Shown here piece by piece: positions 33,859 to 45,508 of a stretch of 64,000 nt of DNA; positions within the stretch are counted from its first letter, which is position 1, and each line of letters opens with the position of its first letter. This DNA comes from Lentisphaerota bacterium (GTDB lineage Bacteria > Verrucomicrobiota > Lentisphaeria > Victivallales > Victivallaceae). The stretch is from assembly GCA_015061865.1 (NCBI GenBank), contig SUVU01000001.1, positions 1 through 64,000 of the forward strand. The letters are read 5' to 3'. The notes beneath the pieces are model-generated. The model saw only the letters and a program-made list of their open reading frames with translations. It made no database searches and was not told where the DNA came from. The position numbers and the translations under genes are program-made.

Positions 33859-35484
33859 ATGATAAATTTTACCTGCCCGCAGTGCGGTGCGACATACGAA
33901 GTGGATGACAGTTACGCCGGTTGTGAGGTCGAGTGCGGAGTGTGCAAACATACCTTTCGCACCCCCTGTTCCCAGGATGTATTTTCCCGCGGCCATATTA
34001 CCTGGATCACCTGTCCGCATTGCTGGCAGCGTTTTGACAGCCGGGAGGTCAAATATATCTCCCGCCATCTGGATCTGATCGGCGATCCGATCCTGGGTGA
34101 AGATGCCCAGCGCCGCTTTGTCCCGGTGCAGTATGCCGCCAACGGCATGGCGCTGGATGAACGGGGCATGGAGTGTCCGGAAATGGCTTGTCCGTCGTGC
34201 CATTTGAAAATTCCGGAATCGGTCATCAATCTGCCCAGTTCGATTTTTTCCATCGTCGGTGCGCCTGCCAGCGGCAAATCCTATTTTCTGACCACGATGA
34301 TGTGGCAGATCCGCAAATTTCTGCCCACTTATTTTGCGTTCAATCTGGCGGATGTGGATTCTTCATTCAACTCCGTACTCAATGAGTATGAGAGCATCCT
34401 TTTTATGAACAACCATCCCGACCGGCTGGTTTCGCTGCCCAAAACCGAATTGCAGGGCAGCGGATACACCAACCAGATCATGATGAAAGGATTTCCGGTG
34501 GATCTGCCCAAACCTTTCATTTTTGCCCTGACGCCGACCAGCAGTCATCCGGATATCGATACACGGAGCCGGGAATTGGAGCGCAATATTATTCTTTACG
34601 ACAACGCCGGGGAACATTTCCAGCCCGGCAATGAGTCGGTCAACAATCTGGCGACCAACCATCTGGCGTATTCCGACGGAATTATTTTTGTTTACGATCC
34701 TCTGCGGGAGAGCCGGCTGCGGAACTACTGCACCAAAGACGATCCGCAGTTTGAACTGGAATCGACCAACCAGCTGGCGCTTTTTTACGAAATGGCGAAC
34801 CGGGTGCGCAAATTTACCGGACTGGGGGCGACGGAAAAATACCGTCAGCCGCTGGTTATTGCCATCGCCAAATTTGATGCGCTGAAAGAGGGTCTGGGGT
34901 TGAAACCGGGTGAGTTGGATTATCTCCACTACGACGAGAAAAACTTTGAATATTCGATAGATTTGCAGAATATCACCAATATGTCGTTCCTGCTGCGGGA
35001 GAAACTTCTGGAGATCGCGCCGGAATTTGTCGGTGCGGCAGAGGGATTTTCGGAAACGGTATACTTCGTGCCGGTGAGTTCATTCGGGTGTTCGCCGCAG
35101 GTCATGTCCGGCGAAAGTTCCGGCAGCGGCATCCGGCAGAAAGTGCTGGGGATCGTCCCCAATGACATCAAACCTTTCTGGACGGAAGTGCCGTTTTTGC
35201 TCCAGTTCTATCTGCACGGTCTGTTGCCGGCATTTGCCGGAGAGGTCGCTGATGCCGGCGAGATCTCCAACTACAAATTTGCCAAAGATGTCATTGTTTT
35301 TTCGCTGCCCGGTTCCACTAAACGCTGTGAACTGCCCTCGACCTACTGGGGATGGGCGATCTATAATTCTGCTGACGGCAAATATTACCGGCTGCCGACC
35401 CGGGACGGTTACAAAGACGACCGTCAGATACGGGCAGCATCGCTGGATGAACAGATCGACAGTGATTTCTGGAATCAGCAGTAA
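33859..35484 (+). CDS. Zinc-ribbon P-loop GTPase-like protein (TRAFAC-like)
   Basis: N-terminal FTCPQCGATYEV...CGVCKHTFRTP and CPHC/CPSC pairs; Walker A VGAPASGKSYF; DxxG-like LYDNAGEHF; NKxD-like IAKFDAL. Confidence 0.75.
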   Translation: MINFTCPQCGATYEVDDSYAGCEVECGVCKHTFRTPCSQDVFSRGHITWITCPHCWQRFDSREVKYISRHLDLIGDPILGEDAQRRFVPVQYAANGMALDERGMECPEMACPSCHLKIPESVINLPSSIFSIVGAPASGKSYFLTTMMWQIRKFLPTYFAFNLADVDSSFNSVLNEYESILFMNNHPDRLVSLPKTELQGSGYTNQIMMKGFPVDLPKPFIFALTPTSSHPDIDTRSRELERNIILYDNAGEHFQPGNESVNNLATNHLAYSDGIIFVYDPLRESRLRNYCTKDDPQFELESTNQLALFYEMANRVRKFTGLGATEKYRQPLVIAIAKFDALKEGLGLKPGELDYLHYDEKNFEYSIDLQNITNMSFLLREKLLEIAPEFVGAAEGFSETVYFVPVSSFGCSPQVMSGESSGSGIRQKVLGIVPNDIKPFWTEVPFLLQFYLHGLLPAFAGEVADAGEISNYKFAKDVIVFSLPGSTKRCELPSTYWGWAIYNSADGKYYRLPTRDGYKDDRQIRAASLDEQIDSDFWNQQ

Positions 35485-35502
35485 ACATTTCCGGGGTGGG
35501 GT

Positions 35503-44912: not shown

Positions 44913-44926
44913 GCTGGAGAAATGAT

Positions 44927-45508
44927 ATGAAACGCTGGGTCGTGTCAGGTTTGATGGCGGCAATCGTGGCAGGCGGTTGCGAAAAACCGGAACCTGCTCC
45001 GGAAAAAAAGCAGATGCCGCCGGAAGAACAGTTTGAAAAATTCCAATTGCCGGAATTCCGTAAACCCGCCCCTGATCCCGTACCGCCGCCGCCGTCCGCT
45101 GCCCCAGCTCCCGGCAAGCCGCCAAAATCCGGCGGCAATGGCGCCAACAGCGCTCCGGGCAACCGCAGCAGCGACGGCAGAAATAATGGCGGCACCCCCG
45201 GCGGGGGAGAGTATGATGTGCCGCATCGTCCGGTCACCGCCACGGAACAGGAGGTCTGGCGGCACGTTATTACTGCTCTGCGGCCGTTGATCGTCGGCAA
45301 AAACGTGGTTTTTGCGCCGCCGGGTGCGGCGGGTACGTCACTGACGGCGGTTCCCGGCAAGCGCAATGAATATGTGATTTGCGGCGTTTGTGAAATCACT
45401 GACGATGCCGGAAACACCCGCAAATACCGTTTTTGCTGCAATGCTTACAGCAACAAATATGAAGCTGCTATTTCCAATGTCAAGTTTACAGAAATTCAGA
45501 CAAATTAA
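44927..45508 (+). CDS. Small lipoprotein, Pro/Gly-rich, unknown function
   Basis: MKRWVVSGLMAAIVAGGCEKPEPAPEKK lipobox (AGGC). Confidence 0.65.
   Translation: MKRWVVSGLMAAIVAGGCEKPEPAPEKKQMPPEEQFEKFQLPEFRKPAPDPVPPPPSAAPAPGKPPKSGGNGANSAPGNRSSDGRNNGGTPGGGEYDVPHRPVTATEQEVWRHVITALRPLIVGKNVVFAPPGAAGTSLTAVPGKRNEYVICGVCEITDDAGNTRKYRFCCNAYSNKYEAAISNVKFTEIQTN

What the first reader, a model, noticed from the sequence alone, without database searches (positions are those of the whole stretch)
33859..45508. Candidate undescribed system: zinc-ribbon GTPase + GAP1-like protein + membrane protease + proton-channel trio
Eight collinear plus-strand genes with small gaps or overlaps follow one good promoter (33766-33794). 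They encode a zinc-ribbon P-loop GTPase-like protein, a protein whose N-terminus resembles the GAP1-N domain (GTPase-associated protein 1, known from predicted GTPase-centred bacterial conflict/signalling systems), a 996-aa TM helical protein, a GYF-like/TM/trypsin-like protease, a MotA/TolQ/ExbB channel protein, two single-TM MotB/TolR-like proteins and a lipoprotein. Coupling a GTPase switch to a protease and an ion-driven motor across the envelope would be a plausible immune or envelope-stress device, conceptually close to Zorya (ZorA/ZorB motor plus effectors). The functional role is inference.
Basis: partly seen in the sequence, partly recalled or inferred. Interest (0 to 1): 0.92.

Follow-up and report, generated by a model that had tools for sequence, protein, structure and literature searches.

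The report
GTPase-linked, ion-driven envelope machine operon
Eight adjacent bacterial genes encode a GTP switch, a large membrane scaffold, a protease and a proton-powered motor, and six of them travel together across several phyla; the switch half was already predicted to belong to bacterial conflict systems, but I found no description of it joined to a motor.

Summary
Eight collinear ORFs (33859-45508, gaps -4 to +18 nt) encode: a zinc-ribbon DO-GTPase2-like protein; a GAP1-N2/GAP1-M protein with one TM and a periplasmic half; a 996-aa one-TM scaffold; a GYF-TM-trypsin protease; an ExbB-type channel; two TolR-like proteins with the motor Asp; and a lipoprotein. The set is not a chance cluster. 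In 401 genomes of the phylum, 34 of 36 carrying this ExbB family also carry GAP1-N2 (73/401 overall; p=1.5e-26). Collinear copies occur in Lentisphaeria, Planctomycetota, Verrucomicrobiota, Desulfamplus and a Nitrospiraceae MAG. The GTPase tree conflicts with RpoB, so the system looks like an exchanged accessory. The GTPase-GAP1 core, including GYF-trypsin partners, is the published GAP1-N2 'GTPase-centric' conflict class (Kaur 2020). That paper's main text mentions no motor, and I found none described elsewhere. Best reading: a GTPase-gated, ion-driven, envelope-spanning machine with a fast-diverging periplasmic face; defence is plausible but untested. It is not Zorya: no OmpA domain, no partner genes, no defence-gene excess in the flanks. 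The closest functional parallel is the Myxococcus Agl-Glt machine. In some relatives the core is instead followed by PilM/PilO-like genes.

The parts
33859..35484 (+). Zinc-ribbon DO-GTPase2-like GTPase, 541 aa (Walker A G134-S141, YDNAGE 247-252, KFD 338-340)
   Evidence: G1/G3/G4 motifs invariant or nearly so in 53 system members; N-terminal module swaps among zinc ribbon, GYF and FHA in orthologues
35503..37980 (+). GAP1 protein, 825 aa: cytosolic GAP1-N2 + GAP1-M, one TM near 349-370, about 450-aa periplasmic half
   Evidence: cytosolic half median 47% vs periplasmic half 25% identity over 144 pairs
36652..36840 (+). In-frame tandem repeat (63-bp period, 3 copies) encoding a Pro/Lys-rich linker just outside the TM of GAP1
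36988..37048 (+). 18-bp perfect tandem repeat (3.4 copies) in the periplasmic half of GAP1
37999..40989 (+). 996-aa one-TM helical scaffold (TM near 348-372), two beta domains near 686-754 and 901-962
   Evidence: AF2 mean pLDDT 87; no PDB fold match at E <= 0.001; present in 43 of 45 ExbB-ascertained loci
40986..42281 (+). GYF-TM-trypsin protease, 431 aa (triad H185/D279/S371 by motif); the variable effector slot of the operon
   Evidence: alternatives in this slot: PrsW, rhomboid, DUF4190, DUF805, RDD, TM2
42285..43148 (+). ExbB/TolQ/MotA-type channel subunit, 287 aa
   Evidence: family separated from the next MotA/ExbB relatives by 359 vs 246 bits
43157..44002 (+). TolR-like subunit 1, 281 aa, TM with invariant D16, coiled coil, C-terminal alpha/beta domain
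44004..44912 (+). TolR-like subunit 2, TM motif LLLDTMCNTFGG (motor Asp D15 counted from ATG 44004)
44927..45508 (+). Probable lipoprotein, 193 aa, Gly/Pro-rich; the slot often holds a Gly-rich vWA protein in other loci
33766..33794 (+). Sigma-70-like promoter candidate, weak
   Evidence: 9 of 12 matches; 22 sites found vs 12.6 expected

Best explanation
The operon encodes an accessory, horizontally exchanged, envelope-spanning machine in which a cytosolic GTPase switch (DO-GTPase + GAP1) gates an ion-driven ExbB-TolR-TolR motor. Shown: gene content, conserved GTPase and motor residues, conserved linkage, conflict with the species tree, fast divergence of the parts predicted to face the periplasm. 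Inferred: the GTPase with GAP1-N/M sets an on/off state in the cytosol; GAP1 and the ~1000-aa scaffold, each with one TM, carry that state to the periplasm; the channel with its two different TolR-like axles uses the ion gradient to move or pull those periplasmic parts; the diverging GAP1 periplasmic half engages a variable target; the membrane-tethered trypsin (PrsW or rhomboid in relatives) makes the output by cleavage. I take this to be a motor-bearing branch of the GAP1-N2 GTPase-centric systems, and conflict at the cell envelope (phage or rival) as the somewhat likelier role. The role is the weakest step.
For: Linkage: 34 of 36 genomes with this ExbB family have GAP1-N2, p=1.5e-26; of 45 ExbB-ascertained loci with at least 9 kb upstream, 43 have the scaffold, 42 GAP1, 39 the GTPase, 45 a TolR; median gap between system genes 2 nt; order permuted but content kept in L061 and L094. 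Machine: motor Asp invariant in TolR1 and at least 90% in TolR2; ExbB conserved at 33-70% identity; GTPase motifs invariant or nearly so. Accessory and exchanged: 36 of 401 genomes; RpoB puts the genus in one clade at 99.9 support while the GTPase data reject that (AU p 1e-5, also rejected). Variable face: GAP1 cytosolic 47% vs periplasmic 25% identity in 144 pairs. Variable output slot: GYF + trypsin, PrsW, rhomboid or multi-TM.
Against: 39 of 73 GAP1-N2 genomes lack this motor, and some close relatives keep GTPase-GAP1-scaffold with no motor found in the genome (G008), so the motor is not obligatory for the core. No clear excess of defence genes in the flanks. No copy in phage or viral collections (ExbB) or plasmids (GTPase). 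No interaction, stoichiometry or phenotype was tested. The TolR1 periplasmic domain shows no ExbD/TolR match.
Confidence: 0.5

Rival explanations
1. A GTPase-controlled surface machine (gliding, adhesion, secretion or pilus-like) analogous to Myxococcus Agl-Glt: GTPase switch, zinc-ribbon/GYF/FHA adaptors, one TolQ-like and two TolR-like motor subunits pulling periplasmic transducers. Not primarily immune.
For: Same motor composition, one TolQ-like plus two TolR-like, as AglR/AglQ/AglS (PMC3169522; PMC9389320). GTPase N-termini carry GYF (10/24), FHA-type (5-6/24) or zinc ribbon (4/24), and GltG has FHA + TonB. Weak GltJ model match on GAP1, 2.5e-4, in a Pro-rich stretch. In family f10 the same core is followed by PilM/PilO-like genes instead of the motor.
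Against: No homologues of Glt outer-membrane parts or of an adhesin in the operon. No match of the GTPase to an MglA-type family. The GltJ match lies in low-complexity sequence. Strong exchange and a diverging periplasmic face fit a target-recognition system as well.
Confidence: 0.27
2. A divergent Ton/Tol-type energiser for outer-membrane transport or integrity, with GTPase and protease as regulators.
For: The only PDB chains within E <= 1 of the ExbB profile are TolQ (0.12). GAP1 periplasmic linkers are Pro-rich (TonB-like) in about a third of members. Two TonB-dependent receptors occur among 110 flanking proteins.
Against: Patchy and exchanged, 36 of 401 genomes, unlike housekeeping Tol. 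No TolA, TolB, Pal or TonB C-terminal domain in the operon.
Confidence: 0.12
3. A Zorya-type anti-phage system or direct homologue.
For: Shared MotA/ExbB family; ZorA models touch P0005 at 1.4e-4.
Against: No ZorA-type extended tail (287 aa), no OmpA-like ZorB, no ZorC, D or E. Flanks not defence-rich. ZorA not within E <= 1 of the ExbB profile in PDB.
Confidence: 0.04
4. Two independent operons (a GAP1-N2 system and a Tol-like motor) that merely lie side by side.
For: Each half can occur without the other.
Against: Linkage across several phyla, p=1.5e-26, 2-nt median gaps, permuted orders that keep the content.
Confidence: 0.05

Closest known systems
GAP1-N2-type GTPase-centric system (Kaur et al. 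2020, PMC7159879)
   Same: DO-GTPase with N-terminal zinc ribbons, GAP1 with N2 and M domains and a C-terminal TM, GYF-trypsin or GYF-TM partner, found in planctomycetes and verrucomicrobia
   Different: No FNIII component found; a 996-aa scaffold takes the third place; an ExbB + two TolR motor is added. The paper's main text has no hit for MotA, TolQ or ExbB
Agl-Glt gliding machine of Myxococcus xanthus
   Same: One TolQ-like and two TolR-like motor proteins; FHA adaptor in GltG; GTPase control (MglA) and zinc-ribbon/GYF in GltJ from own knowledge
   Different: Different GTPase class; no Glt outer-membrane parts; protease present; the GTPase lies in the same operon
Zorya type I-III (ZorA/ZorB + effectors)
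   Same: MotA/ExbB-class ion-driven motor coupled to other proteins
   Different: No OmpA-type ZorB, no ZorA tail, no ZorC/D/E; GTPase and protease instead
TolQR / ExbBD
   Same: Channel family and TM Asp of the axle subunit; nearest solved chain is TolQ, very distant (E 0.12)
   Different: Two different axle subunits with coiled coil and a C-terminal domain not recognised as ExbD

Membership tests
GAP1-N2 GTPase-centric system | GAP1 with N2 and M domains over the curated cut-off | tested here: met
   69.3 and 49.4 bits, cut-offs 24
GAP1-N2 GTPase-centric system | DO-GTPase with N-terminal zinc ribbons next to GAP1 | tested here: met
   window 21.5 bits (below cut-off 27) but 22 of 24 orthologues match; conserved Glu in YDNAGE; adjacent, 18-nt gap
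GAP1-N2 GTPase-centric system | FNIII-repeat component | tested here: not met
   no FNIII in any of the eight proteins. The paper links GAP1-N2 systems to an FNIII protein, so membership is claimed for the GTPase-GAP1 core only
GAP1-N2 GTPase-centric system | GYF-trypsin or GYF-TM partner (planctomycete form) | tested here: met
5:2 ion-driven motors (MotAB/ExbBD/TolQR class) | MotA_ExbB domain over the cut-off | tested here: met
   34.4 bits, cut-off 22.9
5:2 ion-driven motors (MotAB/ExbBD/TolQR class) | Single-TM axle with conserved TM Asp | tested here: met
   TolR1 D16 the only invariant column of 35 sequences; TolR2 Asp at least 90%
5:2 ion-driven motors (MotAB/ExbBD/TolQR class) | 5:2 stoichiometry and ion flow | not testable with these tools
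   needs structure and physiology
ExbD/TolR | ExbD/TolR periplasmic fold | tested here: not met
   TolR1 model finds only weak RNase H-like matches (E 0.02); no ExbD in the top 50; no ExbD family hit
Zorya | ZorA, OmpA-type ZorB and ZorC/D or ZorE | tested here: not met
Agl-Glt | Glt outer-membrane and periplasmic components | tested here: not met
   only a low-complexity GltJ match, 20 bits against cut-off 450
Anti-phage defence system | Protection against phage | not testable with these tools
   only indirect tests made: flanks not enriched

The most novel reading that the evidence does not exclude
A so far undescribed class of bacterial machine in which one GTPase/GAP1/scaffold core plugs into different envelope engines (an ExbB-TolR-TolR ion motor, or a PilM/PilO-like platform in related genomes) and couples nucleotide-switch sensing to force and to regulated periplasmic proteolysis.
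Probability: 0.3. Interest if true: 0.88.

Novelty: new variant of a known kind. Interest (0 to 1): 0.64.

Why it matters
The DO-GTPase/GAP1 systems were predicted in 2020, and in the papers I could search I found no experimental study of them; how the switch could act across the membrane was unclear. A conserved ion motor in the same operon gives a concrete, testable answer: point mutants in one invariant Asp and one Walker Lys ask whether switch and motor work together. It also adds a widespread, uncharacterised branch to the MotAB/TolQR motor family and names cultured hosts (Victivallis vadensis, Botrimarina colliarenosi) for the test.

Tried and rejected
Defence-island enrichment: PADLOC on 110 flanking vs 110 control proteins gave no clear excess; the control was small and from few contigs. 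Phage and viral records (ExbB query) and plasmids (GTPase query): no match. GYF binding a PPG motif in the GAP1 linker: motif in only 8% of members. TonB-like Pro-rich linker in GAP1 as a general rule: only about a third of members. PDB homology of the GAP1 periplasmic half: nothing. Profile searches of TolR proteins and scaffold against PDB returned mostly coiled-coil noise. Empty-site comparison: flanking genes are not kept together in relatives, so not usable. Planctomycetota survey first failed because a locus id is no centre, then ran (11 of 251 genomes over 300 bits). The AU p-value (1e-88) is taken only as a rejection, not as a size.

Full report
WHAT IS THERE. The window lies in a draft genome of 165 contigs. 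Organism names of close matches (Lentisphaeria, Victivallales, Victivallis) place it in that group; its own record is unnamed. Eight + strand ORFs run from 33859 to 45508. The second TolR ORF listed from TTG 43968 has an ATG at 44004, one base after the stop of TolR1; this is the likelier start. Pfam identifies GAP1-N2, GAP1-M, Trypsin_2 and MotA_ExbB over their cut-offs, and zinc ribbon, DO-GTPase2 and GYF_2 below theirs. Orthologues settle the weak ones: 22 of 24 GTPases match DO-GTPase2, and 22 of 50 proteins in the protease slot match GYF_2, best 2e-24. The promoter claim is weak.

IS IT ONE SYSTEM. I collected GAP1-N2 loci from the phylum and ExbB-ascertained loci from named genomes, called ORFs and labelled them with profiles (one search timed out before printing, its ORF files were reused). 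GTPase - GAP1 - ~1000-aa scaffold - variable protein - ExbB - TolR - TolR recurs in Lentisphaeria, Planctomycetota, Verrucomicrobiota, Desulfamplus and a Nitrospiraceae MAG (in the last, the contig holds scaffold, ExbB and TolR, and GAP1-N2 lies in the same genome). ExbB hits in 401 genomes fall in two groups, at or above 359 bits and at or below 246 bits. Of 36 genomes in the upper group 34 have GAP1-N2; Fisher p=1.5e-26. Of 45 ExbB-ascertained loci with at least 9 kb upstream, 43, 42 and 39 have scaffold, GAP1 and GTPase, and all have a TolR; adjacent system genes have a median gap of 2 nt. Caveat: the ExbB profile was built from system members, and part of the named loci are the same genomes as in the first set.

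THE MOTOR. In 35 TolR1 proteins the only invariant column is D16 at the start of the TM; TolR2 has LLLDTMCNTFGG with the Asp at least 90% conserved. This is the position and setting of the ion-binding Asp of MotB, ExbD, TolR and AglQ (own knowledge; AglQ/S). AglRQS likewise has one TolQ-like and two TolR-like proteins. The TolR1 model (pLDDT 88.8) shows a TM helix, coiled coil and a small alpha/beta domain that matches no ExbD chain in the top 50. So 'TolR-like' rests on TM, Asp and neighbourhood, not on the periplasmic fold.

THE CORE AND ITS VARIABLE PARTS. GTPase G1, G3 and G4 motifs are invariant or nearly so in 53 members. Its N-terminus swaps among GYF, FHA and zinc ribbon. GAP1 and the scaffold each have a cytosolic part, one predicted TM and a periplasmic part, with N-in orientation read from flanking charges (own inspection); the window's GYF-trypsin protein has the same plan. 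In 144 pairs whose GTPases share 50-90% identity, the GAP1 cytosolic half has a median of 47% and the periplasmic half 25%, with the former higher in 99% of pairs; the scaffold shows 36 vs 27%. The pairs are not independent (some loci are the same genome seen twice), so this is a description, not a test. GAP1 in the window carries in-frame tandem repeats just outside the TM. The protease slot alternates trypsin, PrsW, rhomboid and multi-TM domains behind GYF; the last slot often holds a Gly-rich vWA protein. The scaffold model (pLDDT 87) has no significant PDB fold match, but pTM is 0.49, so the overall arrangement is unsure.

ACCESSORY AND EXCHANGED. The motor form is in 36 of 401 genomes of the phylum and in 11 of 251 Planctomycetota (count of genomes over 300 bits). 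RpoB unites the window's genus at 99.9 support, while the GTPase tree needs several changes and rejects one clade. G320 and G359 have near-identical RpoB but GTPases far apart in the tree. This shows exchange or differential loss of old copies; I favour exchange.

IS IT DEFENCE. Kaur et al. 2020 (PMC7159879) place GAP1-N2 systems among conflict systems by domain logic. For it here: accessory distribution, exchange, a diverging outer face. Against or neutral: flanks hold no clear excess of defence genes over controls and many ordinary metabolic genes; no phage or viral copy of the ExbB and no plasmid copy of the GTPase. I therefore hold the mechanism (GTPase-gated ion machine) above the role.

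ALTERNATIVE ENGINE. In family f10 (L074, L076, L082-L085, L088) GTPase - short GAP1 - scaffold is followed by PilM (42, 59 and 38 bits in three members, cut-off 27; below it in L088), weak PilO/T2SSM matches and a ~220-aa protein. In Myxococcus one GTPase, MglA, serves both a TolQR-like motor and type IV pili (own knowledge). The parallel is suggestive only.

WHAT IS KNOWN. Searches of the held papers found the DO-GTPase/GAP1 classes only in Kaur 2020 and a passing mention in a PSP paper, and no paper joining them to ExbB/TolR. Subscription journals, preprints and supplements were not searchable. Two papers on the 5:2 / MotAB motor family contain no mention of a GTPase.

VERDICT. Real, conserved, partly known: a motor-bearing variant of the GAP1-N2 GTPase-centric class. 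Mechanism likely, role open.

Noticed in passing
L074, L076, L082, L083, L084, L085, L088 (downstream of the scaffold gene): Motor-less form of the core followed by PilM-like, PilO/T2SSM-like and a ~220-aa protein, as if the ion motor were exchanged for a type IV pilus-like platform.
   Followed up: partly
window 36652-36840 and 36988-37048: In-frame tandem repeats (63 bp x 3; 18 bp x 3.4, perfect) in the periplasmic half of GAP1, possibly recent length variation.
   Followed up: partly
GTPase N-termini, alignment A10: N-terminal adaptor of the GTPase swaps among GYF (10/24), FHA-type (5-6/24) and zinc ribbon (4/24).
   Followed up: partly
L041 (G016) and L042 (G008): Core without ExbB/TolR at the locus: in G016 another locus (L040) has the motor; in G008 no system-type ExbB was found in the genome.
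   Followed up: no
alignment A6, slot after TolR2: Gly-rich single-TM protein with a vWA domain in up to 17 of 40 loci; the window has a short lipoprotein without vWA instead.
   Followed up: no
window 26268-28436: Protein with two T2SSE (PilT-like) ATPase stretches, followed by a 775-aa protein with an N-terminal zinc-ribbon-like CxxC pair and TM, about 5 kb upstream of the operon.
   Followed up: no
TolR1, residues 188-273 (window 43157-44002): C-terminal alpha/beta domain resembles RNase H-like folds (integrase, Pelota, Tex) only weakly, E 0.02; not ExbD.
   Followed up: partly
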